Shown: positions 23,902-64,000 of the stretch, piece by piece | Layout: each line of letters starts with the position of its first letter | Position numbering within the stretch: position 1 is the first letter of the stretch | Source of the DNA: Brasenia schreberi | Taxonomy: Eukaryota; Streptophyta; Magnoliopsida; Nymphaeales; Cabombaceae | NCBI GenBank assembly: GCA_036023115.1 | Contig: JAYKKT010000059.1 | Location: 5,691,001-5,755,000 of the forward strand | Direction: 5' to 3' | Length of the DNA: 64,000 nucleotides | Notes under the pieces: model-generated | The model's database searches: none | What the model saw: the letters and a program-made list of their open reading frames with translations, nothing else | What the model was told of the DNA's origin: nothing | Position numbers and translations under genes: made by a program

Positions 23902-24690
23902 TCAAAGAAGTAGTACTAGATTCTGACAAAACAAGGCTTTAAGGGCCTCGAATGACTCTACACACTTGGGTATCCAATCCCAAGTTCTTTCCTTGTTCAG
24001 TAACTCGGTCAATGGCGTTGATATCTTCGAAAAGTCTCTGATGAACTTTCGATAATAGTTTGTCAAACTTAGGAAACTCCTCAACTCAGAAACATCTCTC
24101 AGAGTTTCCCATCCCTCAATGGCACGGACTTTCTTTGGGTCCATACGAATTTCACCTCCGCCAATGATGTGCCCAAGAAAAGTAATGGTGTTCCTTGCAA
24201 ACTCATATTTTTCCCTCTTAATATAAAGAGAGTGTGACTTGAGTCTCTCAAAGACTAATGTGAGGTATTGGACATTCTCATCCAGGGTCCGACTGTAGAT
24301 CACAATATCATCAAGATATACAACCACTAACGCGTCGATATACCCTGCCAATACCTCGTTCATTAACCTACAGAATATTGTTCGAGCATTCGTGAGCCTA
24401 AAATGCATCACCAGGAACTCATATGCTCCATATCGAGTTAGCATGACCGTCTTGGCCTCATCCCCAGGTGCAATTCTCACCTGCCAGTAACTAGATCGTA
24501 GGTCCAACTTCGTGAACCACATGGCTCCATCAAGTCGATCGAAAAGGTCGGCTACTAGTGGGATCGGGTAGCGGTCATTCACCGTTATCTTGTTCAATGC
24601 CCGATAGTCAACACACATCCGTAGAGAACCATCAGATTTCTTCTGAAACAGTACTGGCGATCCGAAGGGTGACTTAGAAGGTTGTATCAT
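23902..24690 (-). pseudogene. Gypsy reverse transcriptase (and start of RNase H)
   Basis: A 262-aa open frame with RT blocks CVDYRALNKITVNDRYPIP, KLDLRSSYWQVRI, the catalytic YLDD near 24303-24320 and FLGHIIGG, then LRSFLSLTNYYRKFI and the RNase H approach. Upstream minus-strand frames (25266-24715) cover the protease-RT connection. Confidence 0.88.
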
Positions 24691-25266
24691 CCCTGCTTAC
24701 AAGAGCTCTCTCAACTATTTCTGGAGTTCTTCCAGCTCTGGAGGACTCATCCTATACGCGGCACGGGCTAGCATTTTCGCCCCCGGTTCTAGCACGATCT
24801 CATGGTCTGTCCATCGCCTATGTGGTGAAGTTTTTGGGAGATCTGTCGGCATCATGTCCTGGAAGTTGAGCAGTACCTGCTCAATCTCATGTCGAATCCT
24901 AAAGTCTCCGGAGTCCATCTCACATTCTCTCAAGACTGCAAACAATGTGGGGTGGCCTTTTCGAAGGCCGGTCTTGAGCTGCATTGCAGAAAAGTAAATT
25001 GCTCCGCAGGTTAGAAGATTAAGAGCTTTACCTGGGTCGCATTGAGGTACGAATCCAGGTTGGGTAGGATCCACGCATACCAAACCTCCGAGGTGTGGGG
25101 CAGCCATCATGCTCGCTGCCTTGAAGAAGTTGCATCTAAGGACTACTCCAAAATTGTCCATCGTGCTAACGATGAAATCCAAACTACCGCTCCAACACCC
25201 AACTATGAGGCGCCAAGCTCTGGCTAATCCAGTAACTCTAGAAGCACTCGTATTAACCGTTTTCAA

Positions 25267-34253: not shown

Positions 34254-37200
34254 CTATTACATTAACACCTCCTTTAATCTTACGGGGTATAAACTGAAAG
34301 TTTGTCTAACAAGAATTGAAACCGAGTAGCCGATATGGACTTGGTGAAAAAAATCTGCTAATTGCATCTCAGATGTGACATAGCATAGTGAAAGCTTCTT
34401 ATTTAGATACTCTTCTAGAAGAAAGTGGCAATCCATCTCGATATGCTTCGTCCTTTTGTGGAAAATGTTGTTGGAGGCAATGTACATGGCGCTTTTGTTG
34501 TTGTAATACATGATGGCAGGACGCTGCAAAGTAACTCCCATATATGCTAGAATAGTTGTGATCCAAGAGATCTCCATTGCAACCGTAATCATGACTCGAT
34601 ATTCAGTTTTAGTGGATGAGAGCGACACTTTTTGTTACTTTTTGCACTTCCAAGAGATGAGAGATTTGCCTAGAAAAATACAAAAACCAGTCGTAGAGTG
34701 TCTATCGTTGATATCTCCACCCCAAACAATATCCGTATATATAGATAAATCAAAAGAGAAAGAAGAAGTTAAGATAACCCCCTTGTTAACAGTATTTCTA
34801 ACATATCGAATAATGCGTAAAACAACACTCATATGAATAGAAATTGGTGCCTGCTGAAATTGACTTGTTGTGTGGACTGCATGAGAAATATCTGGTCTGG
34901 TAATAGTAAGATAGGTAAGGGCACCTATGAGTTGTCGATTCGGGTAATTTCTCACCATAAGTGGATCTTAACTTGGTGCCTATAACTTCTAGTGTGTCAA
35001 CGATTTTGGTATTTGTAAGACCAGATTTTTCAATGATATCATTGACAAATTTTGTTTGAGACATAAAGTATCCACAATTGTTTTTAGTTATTTCAATACC
35101 TAAAAAGTAATTTATAAGGCCTAAGTCTTTCATGTCAAATTCATGATGAAGATTAAGTTTAACTTCAGTAATTCCTGCTTCATCACTCCCTATGATGATC
35201 GTATCATCCATATACAAAAGTAAGATAACAATACCTGATTCAGTTTTATGTACAAACAAGACAGAATTAGTATAGCAAGTCGTAAAATTGTGCAAATGCA
35301 TGAATTTTTCAAATCGATCACACCAAGCTTTAGGAGCTTGTTTCAAACCATACAGAGCTTTTTGCAATTTAAGAGCATGATTAGGAGGAACATTGAAACC
35401 AAGAGGACTCATGTAAACTTCTTTATTCAAATAACCATTCAGAAAAGCATTCTTAACATCAAGTTGATATATATCCCATTGCCTAATCGCACTAATGGTT
35501 ATGAAAATTCTAATTATGGTCATTCTAACTACTGGAGCAAAGGTTTAATCATAGTCAATTCCATATTCTTGAGTATAACCTTTAGCAACTAGTCTGGCTT
35601 TATATCTCTCGATGTGACCATTGCTATGAGTTTTGATTTTGTAGGATCATCGACATTCATGACTTTCTTATCCTTTGGTATAGGTGCTAGTACTACTATC
35701 CATGTCTGAGCTTTGTCAAGGGCGTTGAGTTCATCTTTTGTAACATCTTCCCATTCTGGAATACCTTTGGCTTGATGATAGAATCTGAGACGAAGAGTGA
35801 CAATCAAGTTTTTTCTTCGTAGTTCAAAAAGATTCATATGACACAAATCGTTGGGGAGGTCTTGAGACTCTAGGTTCTAAACTCGTATTATCAGGTTCTA
35901 TACGGGTATCATTGGTTTCTCTAGCGTGTCTTGTATAATGTGAGGAAAAGGGTTCAACAATTGATTGAGTATCAATAAGTGTATGCATTGTATCACTATC
36001 TTCAACAGGGTTGTCTTGATGATCTACTGAGTCACAATCATTATCTTCTTCTAGATCAAAAAAGTCTTGAGATATGAAGGATTCAGAATTTTCTAAGGGT
36101 TTAGACTTGTAATAAGCATCATTCTCAAAAAAATTTACATACTTAAAAACATATAATTTGTCTTCTATGGGATCAAAATACCTATAACCCTTCTTGTCTA
36201 TGCCATAACCAAGAAATACACATTCAATTGTCTTAGGTGACAGTTTATCATTTTTATCTGTATACACAAAACAGTTACATCCAAAAACTCTAAGTTGTTC
36301 ATAGTATAGAGGGATATTATATAATTTTTGAAAAGGTGAAGTATTCTCAATATTAGACGAAAGCATTCTATTTATAAGATAGACTGCAGTAAGAGTAGCT
36401 TCGGCCCATAAACATTTAGGAACATTACTAGCAATTAATATAATTCAATATGTTTCAATAATATGTCTATGTTTTCTTTCTGCTAGACCATTTTGTTGGG
36501 GTGTTTTAGTGCATGACTTTTGATGAACAATTCCATTTGATTTAATAAATTTTTGGAATTCATTTGACATATATTTTCCTCTCGAATCCGATCTAAAGAT
36601 CTTAATGGTGGCTCCAAATTGATTTTGAATCATATTACAAAAGACTACAAATTTTTCAAATACTTCGAATTTATGTTTTAAGATATATATATATATATAT
36701 AAGTAAAACGAGTAAAGTTATCAACAAAAATAACATAGTATTGAACTCCTCCTTTAGAAACAACGGGCGCGGGGCCCCAAACATCAGAATGTATTAAATC
36801 AAAAGCTTTGTTTGGTACATAGTTTCTTTCTCCAAAAGGAAGATGATGCATTTTTCCAAGGATATAATCTTTACATTCAAACTTTTTCTCTCTAATTGTT
36901 TTCATCAAAGGAATGTTAAATAATTTTTTAGAGTCCAAGTATCCAAGTTTTTTATTATGCCAAAGAGTAGCATCTTAGGCTATATTGCAAAACTCACATT
37001 TTGGCATAACAAGATAGTCCATTTTGTATAGTCCACTTTCTTTATGGCCTTAACCAATCACCTTCCTCGATAAGTGATCTATACCACACACTGTTGGGTT
37101 GAGAAAGTGACTATACAATTATTGTCACATATTTGAGCAACCGAAAGCAAGTTTAAATTAAGTTTTGGTATAAAATTTACGTTTTGAATCTTAAAATTTT

Positions 37201-49462: not shown

Positions 49463-51887
49463 TTTACTTCAGAAAATGGAAAGTATCATGAAAATGTGAC
49501 AGCAAACCATACTAAATTCTTTACATTTAAAAAGGAACCAAAAACTTCTGTTTCTCTTTTCTTTGTTCTCTCCATTGTTTCTTTTACTAGAGTTCAAATA
49601 TTAATTGACCCAAAACCTGATGGCTTTGGAATTGATCTATTTCAGGTTCTGAGGCTATGTTTTCAGACCTGTGCTACTTCCCTGTTAGGTTGGTACAGGT
49701 ATAACCAATTTGAGGGTATTAATGCAGCTGTCATGTAATGATCATTATCTTGTTTACTTGTTAAACATTTTGGAGAAAGCATTGCTTATTAATTTATCTC
49801 ACATTTTACTGATTGGCATTAACTAATGTGATTGCAGGTCACGTTTGTTTTCCTAGTCCTCCCATGCCTAATGTTAGGATATCTAGGGCAAGCTGCCTTT
49901 TTGTTGAAAAACCTCGACAAATCTGAGCGTCTTCTTTTATTCTATACCAGGTAATTTAACAATTGTGGTTGCAATTGCTCCTACCTTCGTAGTTATATTA
50001 TTTAAGAAACTAAATGACATTACATTATCAATGACCACAGATGGAGCTTTCTGGCCTGTCTTTATCATTGCAAATGTTGCTGCACTAATTGCTAGTCGAG
50101 TAATGACATCGGCTATATTTTCCTGTATAAAGCAATCAATCGCTCTTGGCTGTTTTCCTCGTCTTAACATCGTACACACTTCGAGGAAATTTATGTGCCA
50201 GATATACATTCCTGTCATGAACTGCTTCCTGCTCGTTTTCTGCTTGTTGGTTGTCACCACCTTCACGAGTACAAATGAAATCGGAAACACTTATGGTATC
50301 TTCATCTAACCTCATGGCTCTATGTTTTAGAGACTAGAGAGTACTAATTTGATTCCATTTGATTGGTTATCCATCCCCTAGCTGTTATTATCTTCTGATC
50401 AACAGGAATTACGGAGCTTGGGATGATGATGGTGACTACCGTTTAATGATTCTAATATGGCAGATCAACATTGTCATTGTGCTCGCCTTCTGTCTTCTAT
50501 TCCTGGGAGTTGAGCTAGTATTCTTTTCTTCAGTTCTTTGGAGTATCCTTGATGGAAGCTGGGCCATTCTGCTATTTGCAGCTATTGCATTTATGGTGAT
50601 GTATATATGGAACTACGGTAGTAAGCTGAAATATGAAACTGAGGTGCGGCAGAAATTATCAACTGATATAATGAATGAACTGGGCCCTAGCCTTGGAACT
50701 ATAAGAGCCCCAGCAATAGGCCTGCTATATACTGAGCTAGTCAGAGGGGTCCCAGCAATATTTGGGCAGTTTCTGACTACCCTTCCAGCGATTCATTCTA
50801 TGATCATATTTGTATGTATTAAGTACGTCCCAGTCCCAGTTGTTCCACAGAATGAACGGTTTCTTTTCCGGCGAGTGTGCTCCAAGAGTTACCATATATT
50901 CCGCTGCATTGCAAGGTACTGCGGACTTGCCAAGACTTTCATAAACTTTTATGCCTTAATGTTTGTTCTTCCTCTTAACCGCTTGTGTCACAAATGAACT
51001 ATCTTCCAAGCTTTTAAAATTCCCCTTTATGAAAGTTTTGATTTTGCAAACTTGGGTGTGTTTCATTCTTGGGGTGTGCCCAACAATAATAGATTAGGGA
51101 AGGAAATGTTTACGGGCTCTTATGTTGGCAGCCACATTAAGATAGTCATTGAGCTAGGTCCTACAGGACTAAAATGACCAGAGTTGCTGTCTCTACCATA
51201 ACGTTGACGTGATTGTTTGTGTCCATGTGAGAATTTCGAACCAAATTTCAGAATGGAGCTTATTTCCAGGATACCTGAGTTACATAGCCATGTCATCCGT
51301 GTCTTTCTTTACGTTTTCTTTTGCTGATAAGTTCATGTTTGTTTGGTTTCTACAGGTATGGCTACAAAGATGTGCGCAGAGAGAATCATCAGGCATTTGA
51401 GAAGCTTCTTATAGAAAGCCTTGAGAAGTTCATCAGGCGGGAAGCTCAAGAACGTTCACTGGAGAGCGATGAAGACAGTGATTCTGAAGAAGAGGATCCC
51501 TCTAGGACCCTTATTGCTTCAAATGGCAGTGTATATTCACTCACAGTGCCCTTTCTGTCTGACATCGAGAGCGTTATTCAGCCACCCACAGGGTCAAGCA
51601 CCTCCATGGAGATAACCTCAGCAAGCGAAAGACAAGCCGAAATATCCGCATTAGAGGGAGACAGCCTCGAGAGGGAGCTGTCATTTATACGGAGAGCCAA
51701 GGATTCAGGGATGGTCTATCTTTTAGGACATGGAGATATCAGAGCAAGGAAGAATTCTTGGTTTATCAAGAAACTGGTTATCAATTATTTCTATGCGTTC
51801 TTGAGAAAGAATTGCCGAGCAAGTATTGCAACACTGAGTGTACCGCACACAAACTTAATGCAAGTCGGAATGACCTACATGGTATGA

Positions 51888-59935: not shown

Positions 59936-60633
59936 CTGCGATAAGTAGGAAATATGAACTTTGGCAGGTAAAAATACAAAATCAGAATAGACAAACAGAG
60001 ATGCTCAAGTGACTTAACAGAGCACAGAAAGAGGACCTTTTACATCATATTTTTGGTTAAGGATTAAAATTATCCATCAAAAGTTCCTCGATCGTGCAAG
60101 GGGCAGGATCATAGCACTTTTGCCAAGAAAAAAAAATGCATCATATTGCATATGCACATCAAGGCTATTTCATCTTGTAGAGCTAGCACAAGTGACCTAT
60201 AATTCGTGGTTCATGAACAATCCTTTACTTATGAGTTTTGATGTCCTTTTATGTGCATTGATTGTATAGCTTTTCTACCTCACTACACCCCAAAAGCATT
60301 AACCCGTTTTGCATCTTATCATGCAATCCGTATCATAACATAGTGTATCCCTAACAAAAAGGGATATGATACAATGTTGTATCAATACAGAAGGGCGTAC
60401 TGCACGATGCATAGTGTATTGTACGATATGCATGTGTATCACACATAATGTCTGTATCGCGTGATACTGCTGATATGTGCCCTAATTTCGTTTACGATGG
60501 AGCCTGCACGAAGAAACATACTTCCTCTCATTGTCTCCTTACATTTCCGTGGTGGTGGAGGGTGTGGGGGGGTTTTGCAAAAAAAATGTTCGATTACAAG
60601 CATGTGTCTTTACCTTCTATGGACGATTTCAAC
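59936..60633. other. Unassigned DNA upstream of the visible NSA1-like exons
   Basis: No further WD-repeat exon is seen. 60290-60480 is rich in GTATC/GATAC motifs that recall the ends of the hAT at 45.5 kb, without identifiable termini. Confidence 0.4.
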
Positions 60634-61372
60634 CTATGTCACATGGGTGCGGGTGCGGGATACGGTAAATTTCAAAAATTTTGGGTGCGGCGACACGGCT
60701 AGGGTATATAATATTATATATTATATATAATATTCAACCTAAATAAATCAATCATAATACAACTAGTATTTGCTAATTTTGGGTGCACATAGGTATCAAT
60801 TAGCAAGTTCTCACATAATGATCTGAAACTTACAATGATTTTATGAGCTACAAAATATCGAAGTTATGGATTCAAAGAGTTTCGAGATCTTTAGTAGGAT
60901 ATAACATATACTAGTATTTGTGCTAGGATCCACTAGTGATGTCATACTCTTCTGTTCTATTGATCAGGTAATGTTCCTAGTCTTTAAATGTGTTTGGTGA
61001 CAAAGATTATTCTGTGCAAAGGCATACAGTATGGAGTCAAGAATCCAATCAGATTGAGTAATAAGAAACCAATTGTTCGCACCCAAAATCATTAAAGCTA
61101 ATATGATATACAACTACAATAGCAAGTACACAACTTTATAAGTTTATATTAAAGCAAAACATATAAATGGTAAACAACTACTAATTTCATCATAATACAC
61201 AAATCAATCTTCATTATCCGGACCCATTTAACCGTGAGTTACAAAAATATATATTTATTTATTTATTTATTTATTTTGCAAAATTTTTTTTTTTGCCATG
61301 CCGCACCCGACACGGTGTCGCACCAATGTCGAGGTCGACACTCCACCCCTTAGAAGTGTCTGTGTGACTTAG
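60634..61372. mobile_element. hAT-like element A (739 bp), deletion derivative of the RRM-carrying type
   Basis: Ends are CTATGTCACATGGG and (inverted) CTAAGTCACACAGA. A perfect 8-bp duplication ATTTCAAC lies at 60626-60633 and 61373-61380. Subterminal GGGTGCGGGTGCGG and GACACGGTGTCG blocks match element B (63226-63862). It contains no gene, but keeps the CCGTGAGTTA splice-donor text that follows the RRM exon in element B. Confidence 0.8.
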
Positions 61373-63225
61373 ATTTCAACACATTTTTTTGGACTTTTCA
61401 GGTATAGAACATTCATCCTAATCCATATTTCAACCCTTATGTTTAGATTTTTTATTTTGACTTGTATTTGTTAGATTTTTATTCCCTTTCAAGCAACAAC
61501 AACTAAGCCTTTTCATGGATTCTTTGTTTCTACATAGCCCTATCATGTGTCATGCTAGCAGTTAACTCAATATAAAATAGATCATTCTTTATTGTTTCTT
61601 TCCAACGCTTTTATGGTTGTCCTCTTCCTCTTTTAACATTTTCACAATCAAATTTTTCACTTCTTATGGGAGCGTCTTTTGGTCGTCCTTCTACATGTCC
61701 AAACATCTTAAACAATTTTTCCTCATTTCATCCTCTATTGGTGCTACTCCCAATTGGTTTCTAATAACCTTATTATGTATAAGGTCTTTCCTTGTGTGAC
61801 TACTTATACATCTCAAGATTCTCAACATCTTCATTTTTGCTACATACATCTTTTATACACATTGATGATTAATTGCCCAACACTCATAACCATAAAACAT
61901 AACAGGTCTAATTGTTGCTCTATAATATTTACCTTCCAACTTTAATGGTATCTTATCACACAAAATAACTTTAATGGTATCTTATCACACAAAATACATG
62001 ATGCCCTCTCCATTTTAATGGACCGACATTAATTCTATGTGTAACATCTCCATCAATTTTTCCATCACTTTGAAAAATTGACCCTAGGTATTTAAAAATT
62101 TCCTTATCAGCGATGCAATGTGTGTCAATCTTAATTTCTATGTCCTCTAAAGTACCCAAATGATTAAACTTACATTCCATATATTTTTACTTTATTCTAC
62201 TAAGTTGGAAACCTATACTTTCTAACGTTTCTCTCCATAATTTCAATTTCCTATTAACTTTTGACTAACACAATGTCATATGCAAATAACATACACCAAG
62301 GTACTTCATCTTTAATATGTTTTGTTAAATCATCAATGACCAATATAAATAGACTTAAAATTGATCCCTGATGTAACCCAATATTAACTTCAAAGGAGTT
62401 TTCTTATGAGTCCTCACACATGTATTTGCACCATCATACATGTCTCTTATAAGATTTATACATGTCAATGAGATACTTATCTTTTCTAAGGTACTCCAAA
62501 GAACATATCTTTGCACCCTATCGTAAGCTTTTTCTAGATCAATAAAAATCATGTGAAGGTTCTTCTTTTTTGCTCTAAAATATTTCATAAGACGTCTCAA
62601 ACGGTGAATCGCTTCAATAGTAGATATGCTTAGACGGCGAATCGCTTCAATAGTAGATCTGCTTGACATGAACCCAAATTGGTTCTCTATTGTACTTTAT
62701 ACATGTCTTAACCTACGTTTGATAATTCTTTCTTATAATTTCATAATATTGCTCATTAACTTGATACCTCGATAATTCGCACAATTTTAAATGTCTCCCT
62801 TGTTCTTGTATATGGGTATAAGTGTACTCGCTCTCCATTCCTCGAATATCTTTTGGTTTCTTCATATTTCATTAAATAGTCTTATGATACAAGTGATTCC
62901 CGTCTCTCCTAGAATTTTTCAAACTTCTATAGGAATATTATCCAGTCCTACATATTTACCACCATTCATATGTTTAAGAGCCTCTTTCACGTTATTCCTT
63001 TGAATATGTTGGTAGAAATTATGGTTTATATACTTTTCTCATTTGGCTAATTCTCATAAGCTAATACTAACAGCTTTATTTTCATTAAAAAGCTTATAGA
63101 AATAATTTTTCCAAATATTTTTCATATAATCATTTGTCACTAGAATCTTCTCATCCTCATCTTTGATGCATCTAACAAAAGTAAGATCCTTAGTTTTCTT
63201 ATCTCTAGCCTTAGTTATCGTAAAA

Positions 63226-63862
63226 CTATGTCACACGGGTGCGGGTGCGGCAAATTTCAAAAATTTTGAGAACGGCGACACGGCTAGGGTATATAATAAT
63301 ATAATATTCCAGCTACAACAAGTGAGACATCATTAACATAAGTATATGACAATAGCAAGTACACAACTTTATATTAAAGCAAAACACAAACTGTAAACAA
63401 CTACTCATTTCATCATAATACAGAAATCAATCTTCACTATCCAGACCCATTTATCCAAAAAGACCCGAACTTCAAAATTGATACCATATTTTGAAGCGTG
63501 GAATATCCACACAAAAGGAAGTGAAGAAGGTCCGCGTTGAGATATTTTTCTACGTTCATCGAAGAAGTTTCATGGGAGATGATGGAATACAAGCTGAAGG
63601 AGCATTTTAGAAACTATGGTGAGGTAACTCAGGTGGTCATCATGGGAGATAAGGTCACAAGTCGACTAAGAGGCTTCGATTTCATCGTCTTCATGGACTA
63701 CTCCCTCTTTGATCGGGTTCTCCATGATAAATACACCATACACGGCAGAACCGTGAGTTAAAAATAATAATAATAATAATAAATTGCATTTTTTTTGCTA
63801 TGCCGTACCGACACTGTGTCGAGGTCGACACTCCACCTCTTAGAAGTGTTTGTGTGACTTAG
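63226..63862 (+). mobile_element. hAT-like element B (637 bp) carrying a captured RRM exon
   Basis: Ends are CTATGTCACACGGG and (inverted) CTAAGTCACACAAA, the same as element A. A perfect 8-bp duplication TCGTAAAA lies at 63218-63225 and 63863-63870. Inserted inside the minus-strand RTE, so it is younger than that copy. No transposase. The interior holds host-gene sequence at about 63500-63757. Confidence 0.85.
63500..63757 (+). pseudogene. Captured hnRNP-type RRM exon inside hAT-like element B
   Basis: The plus frame from 63537 reads EEVSWEMMEYKLKEHFRNYG, EVTQVVIMGDKVTSRLRGFD, FIVFMDYSLFDRVLHDKYTI, HGRTV: beta1-end, helix 1, RNP1 (RGFDFIVF, with Gly to Asp) and the DRVL-DKHTI-GRTVE signature of plant two-RRM hnRNP (RNP1/Musashi-like) proteins. 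RNP2 is lost through divergence (RYFSTFIE). The exon ends at GTGAGT, an intact-looking splice donor. Likely not functional alone. Confidence 0.75.
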
Positions 63863-64000
63863 TCGTAAAAATATCTTTCACCTTGTTTTGAATAAACTTT
63901 TTATATAAATCCTCCCAAATTTTGGTTTTGCTTCACTAACGGTCTTTTTCACTTCTTTTATTGATTTCTTATAAGTCTCAAGTTTCACTAGTCTTTTTTG

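What the first reader, a model, noticed from the sequence alone, without database searches (positions are those of the whole stretch)
63226..63862. Pack-type hAT-like element carrying an hnRNP RRM exon, with a second copy that lost it
Elements A (60634-61372) and B (63226-63862) share termini, subterminal blocks and internal text, and each has a perfect 8-bp target duplication (ATTTCAAC, TCGTAAAA). B carries an RRM exon ending at a GTGAGT donor. In A the text before and after the exon (CCCATTTA then ACCGTGAGTT) is joined directly, so A comes from an exon-bearing ancestor by internal deletion. Gene-fragment capture is well known for Pack-MULEs and Helitrons, but less so for 8-bp-duplication elements. 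The exon keeps its donor site and could be spliced into flanking transcripts.
Basis: partly seen in the sequence, partly recalled or inferred. Interest (0 to 1): 0.8.

Follow-up and report, generated by a model that had tools for sequence, protein, structure and literature searches.

The report
Jumping DNA that multiplied a gene's exon
In this plant genome a small non-coding jumping element picked up the start of a gene for an RNA-binding protein and spread it to well over a hundred places, and a younger branch of the same element then lost the piece; gene capture of this kind is known in plants, but the readable stages and the high copy number make this a clear example.

Summary
B (63226-63862) and A (60634-61372) are non-autonomous, hAT-like elements with perfect 8-bp duplications. 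The home genome (1.055 Gb) holds many copies of each. Exact or one-mismatch duplications occur in 24 of 38 B-type and 29 of 30 A-type copies, against 0.66 and 0.96 with shuffled flanks. The B-type cargo comes from a plant hnRNP1/Musashi-like gene: a short leader piece, exon 1 without its start codon, and about 9 bases of intron 1. The nearest of six genes read is C87:10084395, 182 of 198 nt. One gene reads ACC|GTGAGTTACC exactly at the exon end. The same text in A is therefore a remnant of the captured gene, so A descends from an exon-bearing ancestor. But A is not one damaged copy: the 30 A-type loci read share the junction (26 exactly), so it marks a subfamily, apparently younger. A third, apparently older, low-copy type (L115, about 17 loci) keeps leader and start codon. 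Exon changes among B copies look neutral. Pack-hATs are already described. No transposase with these ends was found; splicing is untested. Verdict: a new, high-copy member of a known kind.

The parts
63218..63225 (+). target-site duplication TCGTAAAA, left of B
63226..63862 (+). element B: non-autonomous hAT-like Pack element with hnRNP1 exon-1 fragment
63226..63237 (+). left terminus CTATGTCACACG
63349..63455 (+). middle block shared with A, origin unknown
63528..63554 (+). captured leader/upstream piece of the donor gene (matches 146-119 nt before its ATG)
   Evidence: 85.7% over 28 nt, E 8.6e-4, for the family consensus; short match
63555..63752 (+). captured part of hnRNP1 exon 1 (RRM from FIGGVSW to GRT in the consensus); start codon and codons 1-8 missing
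63753..63760 (+). captured start of intron 1 (GTGAGTTA; family consensus GTGAGTTAC)
   Evidence: gene L111 reads ACC then GTGAGTTACC
63842..63862 (+). right terminus AGAAGTGTTTGTGTGACTTAG
63863..63870 (+). target-site duplication TCGTAAAA, right of B
60626..60633 (+). target-site duplication ATTTCAAC, left of A
60634..61372 (+). element A: member of the exon-less subfamily
60740..61115 (+). A-specific block replacing about 40 nt of B; origin unknown
61223..61242 (+). deletion junction of the A subfamily: CCCATTTA joined to exon end ACC and intron start GTGAGTTAC
61373..61380 (+). target-site duplication ATTTCAAC, right of A

Best explanation
A non-autonomous hAT-like transposon captured, at the DNA level and probably once, leader, exon 1 and the first intron bases of a plant hnRNP1/Musashi-like gene. 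An early low-copy form (L115 type) kept leader and start codon. A derivative (B type) that had lost most of the leader and the start codon was amplified to at least the order of 200 and perhaps 600 copies, presumably by a hAT transposase acting in trans. From the B lineage a form with the exon deleted (A type) arose and was amplified, apparently more recently. The exon is passenger DNA that decays neutrally. Shown: ends, duplications, dispersal, gene origin including intron bases, the shared A junction. Inferred: a hAT transposase in trans, the order of events, and that the exon was lost by abortive gap repair or a similar deletion.
For: Duplications: within one mismatch in 24 of 38 B and 29 of 30 A copies, against 0.66 and 0.96 with shuffled flanks. 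Target preference T at positions 2-3, A at 6-7 in 39 exact duplications. Cargo: consensus exon 182/198 identical to gene L113, and ACC|GTGAGTTAC as in gene L111; a leader piece of the gene joined to the exon at codon 9. Splice position: 117 of 120 listed database ORFs do not go on with next-exon text (EAK-like) after this point; that search admits only proteins near exon length, so it favours such ORFs. One capture: consensus B and L115 share four changes absent from six genes. A from B: the intron remnant stands in 30 of 30 A loci read (26 exact); A copies 98.6% to their consensus, B copies 95.5%; A lies mostly on short branches inside B diversity. Copy number: the exact exon-intron junction occurs 192 times, control 0; 13 of 40 B copies have it exactly, hence about 600. 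Neutral exon: syn/non/stop 103/167/14 against 91/178/15 expected.
Against: No transposase with matching ends: in 30 hAT loci, each with only 1.5 kb on either side, one poor left-end match (L101). Each set of 40 was the top of a ranked list chosen by similarity to the window copies, so age and copy-number comparisons are biased. The tree is midpoint-rooted and one B copy (L032) falls inside A. The gene nearest by exon (L113) reads GTAAGTTAC, one base off; only L111 matches the intron text exactly. The leader match is 28 nt. The A-specific block is unexplained, so A is not simply B minus the exon. 14 of 38 B copies have two or more mismatches in the duplication.
Confidence: 0.87

Rival explanations
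1. The exon-less A form is ancestral and B gained the exon by insertion between CATTTA and ACCGTGAGTT; the donor-like text was there by chance.
For: A is also abundant (3235 first-look candidates) and lacks everything from CATTTA to the exon end in one step.
Against: The 12 nt ACC-GTGAGTTAC equal the exon end and intron start of gene L111. L115 has the gene's text from 87 nt before the ATG through exon 1 into the intron in one run. A copies are closer to their consensus (98.6% against 95.5%) and mostly nested in B.
Confidence: 0.05
2. The exon family is retained because it acts on the host hnRNP1 genes, for example as a source of small RNAs or as a 5' exon for neighbouring transcripts.
For: High copy number with 82-92% exon identity to six genes read; donor GT kept in 33 of 40 B copies.
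Against: Exon changes match neutral expectation; the B consensus has no start codon; the successful A subfamily lacks the exon.
Confidence: 0.07
3. The elements belong to another superfamily with 8-bp duplications rather than hAT.
For: No transposase was tied to these ends.
Against: 8-bp duplication with T at 2-3 and A at 6-7, short imperfect terminal repeats, and hAT transposases abundant in this genome (150 of 150 scored over cut-off, 8037 candidates).
Confidence: 0.07

Closest known systems
Pack-hAT elements of maize and rice (Gisby and Catoni 2022, PMC8903248; abstract, passages and sections 8-9 seen)
   Same: Non-autonomous, terminal repeats, 8-nt duplication, host coding fragment inside; they also describe a cluster with and without the gene insert (a PIF family) and a hAT element that gives a maize gene a new splice donor.
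   Different: Here leader-bearing, exon-bearing and exon-less forms can be put in order, with intron bases marking the loss; 192 exact junctions here, while their largest maize clusters hold 'more than one hundred' elements. Their capture mechanism was not tested here.
Hatvine-6 of grapevine (PMC2528002; passages seen)
   Same: hAT elements carrying exon and intron sequence of the host.
   Different: Those share a transposase sequence and hold cargo that is unique or shared by few; this one is short, has no transposase, and one cargo is shared by very many copies.
Multicopy Pack-TIRs of animals, e.g. hAT-N8_XT with CAPSL 5'UTR (PMC8277862; passages seen)
   Same: hAT non-autonomous element with a host leader fragment, moved to several places with different duplications.
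   Different: Three copies in frog against well over a hundred here.

Membership tests
hAT superfamily | 8-bp target-site duplication | tested here: met
   15 of 38 B and 24 of 30 A copies exact; shuffled flanks 0.40 and 0.79
hAT superfamily | target preference with T near the start and A near the end of the 8 bp | tested here: met
   39 exact duplications: T 19 and 25 at positions 2-3, A 22 and 21 at 6-7; flanks are 32% T, 33% A. That hATs prefer such targets is recalled knowledge
hAT superfamily | short terminal inverted repeats | tested here: met
   CTATGTCACA / CTAAGTCACA; first 12 bases CTATGTCACACG in 24 of 40 B copies
hAT superfamily | mobilised by a hAT transposase (autonomous relative with the same ends) | tested here: inconclusive
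   30 of 150 scored hAT loci, 1.5 kb either side, scanned for the ends: one weak left-end match; longer stretches were not given
Pack-TYPE (Pack-hAT) | host gene fragment between the terminal repeats, no transposase | tested here: met
Pack-TYPE (Pack-hAT) | mobile after capture: dispersed copies with cargo and own duplications | tested here: met
Pack-TYPE (Pack-hAT) | DNA-level (not RNA-level) capture | tested here: met
   intron bases follow the exon

The most novel reading that the evidence does not exclude
The hnRNP1 first exon is a recurrent cargo: besides this family, 21 of 120 listed database exon ORFs share one unusual end and 19 of these an extra leader, as if another plant lineage had amplified the same exon independently. 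A shared benefit, such as interference with the host's own hnRNP1 messages, could explain the repetition.
Probability: 0.08. Interest if true: 0.75.

Novelty: new member of a known kind. Interest (0 to 1): 0.42.

Why it matters
It gives one transposon family in which a donor gene, the captured segment with its intron edge, a start-codon-bearing stage, a high-copy exon-bearing stage and an exon-less stage can all be read in a single genome. That allows the timing and deletion steps of Pack element evolution to be measured, and suggests that a host exon can ride to hundreds of copies and then be dropped without stopping amplification.

Tried and rejected
A protein search with the window's own fragment found nothing, because no candidate shared enough words; a small alignment with recalled plant RRMs did. 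The consensus exon ORF matched only P0001, so no other species with this family was identified. MAFFT of A against B forced false matches across the long gaps; a low gap-extension alignment replaced it. An autonomous partner was sought in 30 hAT loci without success. A density estimate from fetched flanks gave 2 places in 210,578 letters, too few for more than an order of magnitude. The A junction could not be counted genome-wide. I considered A as a single broken copy (rejected: 30 of 30 loci read share the junction), a retrocopy origin (rejected: intron bases), and selection on the exon (not supported). Searches of print; in their listings and in the passages read I saw no such family, but the terms were general and the library is partial.

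Full report
What is there. The window is taken to be plant DNA: it lies in a genome of 1,055,133,615 bases in 92 contigs, holds exons of a KUP-type potassium transporter at about 50.4-51.9 kb, and the nearest genes to the cargo are plant-type hnRNP1 genes. At its right end stand two short elements in the same orientation, A (60634-61372) and B (63226-63862). Each begins CTATGTCACA and ends TGTGACTTAG and is flanked by a perfect 8-bp repeat. They share a left, a middle and a right block (E 9e-23, 4e-33, 2e-17 within the window). B alone has an RRM fragment, A alone a block of about 375 nt.

Copies. Searching the genome with B gave 2857 first-look candidates, of which 40 were scored, the window copy included, all spanning nearly the whole query; searching with A gave 3235 candidates, 40 scored. 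I read all 40 B loci and 30 of the 40 A loci, the window's own copies included. Both ends were recognised in 38 of 40 B and 30 of 30 A loci. Duplications were exact in 15 of 38 and 24 of 30, and within one mismatch in 24 of 38 and 29 of 30; with right flanks shuffled among copies the means were 0.40, 0.79, 0.66 and 0.96. Three B loci on one contig (L027, L028, L036) share flanks and are not independent. The 39 exact duplications favour T at positions 2-3 and A at 6-7. These features fit hAT, as does the wealth of hAT transposases here (150 of 150 scored matches over the Pfam cut-off), but no transposase was tied to these ends: of 30 such loci, with 1.5 kb on either side, one (L101) has a poor match to the left end.

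The cargo. The consensus of 40 B copies (666 nt) has the RNP motifs that the window copy has lost: FIGGVSW and RGFGFIVF against FIEEVSW and RGFDFIVF. A search with a plant exon-1 protein gave 1814 candidates, 150 scored: six genes at 88-91% lead the list; counted by hand, 33 of 150 rows start at residues 1-6 and 117 at residues 7-11, the pattern expected of B-type copies, though these rows were not checked one by one. By exon the six genes fall in two groups of three. The consensus exon is 182/198 identical to L113 (C87:10084395), 178/198 to L110, 172/198 to L111 and 82-83% to the others. The exon ends at ACC in L110, L111 and L113 (GCC in the other three), followed by the donor. L111 continues GTGAGTTACC, L113 GTAAGTTACC, L110 GTGAGATACC, and the element GTGAGTTAC. 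So about nine intron bases were captured; the gene nearest by exon differs from the element at one of them. Upstream, consensus 327-353 matches the L113 gene 146-119 nt before its ATG (85.7% of 28, E 8.6e-4), and the text then jumps to codon 9: 141 nt with the start codon are missing in the B lineage. This leader match is short and the weakest link.

An apparently older stage. L115 (C82:24854270-24855060) ends with the same right terminus but has the gene's text from 87 nt before the ATG through exon 1 into the intron in one run (87.5% over 321 nt). Its left end was not fetched. It shares four changes with consensus B that none of the six genes has, so one capture explains both. Its RRM frame has one stop. 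Its first 425 bases found 27 candidates, all scored, giving 41 matches. I group these into about 17 L115-type loci (76-93% to L115 besides itself); gene-like places that match only from about position 294 or later (C68:15252476, C88:33708118, C87:10084308, and C60, C17, C32 and C89 places that I did not examine); and two places (C85:17614068, C49:11485987) that hold the middle part without gene text, so that part is probably a separate repeat lodged in the leader.

Loss of the exon. All 30 A loci read carry GACCCATTTAACCGTGAGTTAC: 26 exactly, three with one edit, one (L055) with two. Consensus A and B are nearly identical in the shared blocks; A lacks B's text from CATTT to the exon end. As ACC-GTGAGTTAC is gene text, A's ancestor had the exon. 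A copies are 98.6% (97.2-99.4) identical to their consensus, B copies 95.5% (93.4-97.1); both sets were picked by similarity to the window copies. A tree of the shared blocks puts A on mostly short branches inside B diversity; it is midpoint-rooted and one B copy, L032, falls within A. The A-specific block shows that A is more than B minus the exon; I cannot say which state of that block is older.

Copy number. The exact 18-base exon-intron junction occurs 192 times (89 forward, 103 reverse), the reversed control 0; one of the 100 or so places listed is gene L111 (C68:15252785), and L115-type copies count too. Since 13 of 40 B copies hold it exactly, some 600 exon-bearing copies are likely; this is rough, because the 40 were chosen by similarity. 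The A junction could not be counted; that request did not complete.

Function. Among 40 B copies, single changes in the RRM frame were 103 synonymous, 167 replacing, 14 stops; 91, 178 and 15 are expected from the family's own mutation spectrum. The frame is free of stops and indels in 23 of 40. Changes are mostly C to T and G to A (669 of 1167). The donor GT survives in 33 of 40. In the gene the fragment is the first exon, so it brings no acceptor, and in B it has no start codon. It is most likely passenger DNA. Whether any copy is spliced or makes small RNA cannot be told here.

Comparison. Pack-hAT elements are described in maize and rice, with 8-nt duplications, and one hAT element supplies a new splice donor (PMC8903248: abstract, passages, sections 8 and 9 seen). 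Grapevine Hatvine-6 elements carry exon and intron text (PMC2528002, passages). In animals multicopy Pack-TIRs are rare (four, 1.4%), one hAT case having three copies (PMC8277862, passages). This family therefore belongs to a known kind. What stands out is the number of copies and the readable series of stages.

Noticed in passing
database proteins P0022, P0026 and others: 21 of 120 listed exon-1 ORFs end in TIDA(R/K)TV-like text with an immediate stop, 19 with an M..DGLLE-like leader; one named record (P0114) is Quercus suber. They look like another amplified hnRNP1 exon 1 in a different plant.
   Followed up: partly
window 61400-63200 and 63871-64000, minus strand: Text resembles a decayed non-LTR retrotransposon; B appears to be inserted in it. 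Judged by eye only.
   Followed up: no
L115 about 29-294; G000:C85:17614068, C49:11485987: A roughly 266-nt block inside the captured leader of L115-type elements also occurs, in part, without gene text, probably a second repeat inserted there.
   Followed up: partly
window 60740-61115: A-specific block of about 375 nt with no known source, present in the A consensus.
   Followed up: partly
window 50353-51884: Exons of a KUP/HAK-type potassium transporter (Pfam K_trans, K_trans_C).
   Followed up: no
window 23902-24696 and 34801-36444, minus strand: Retrotransposon pieces (Pfam RVT_1 in the first; RVT_2 and SH3_retrovirus in the second).
   Followed up: no
G000 hnRNP1 genes L109-L114: Six hnRNP1 genes in two groups of three close copies, which may reflect genome duplication.
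   Followed up: no
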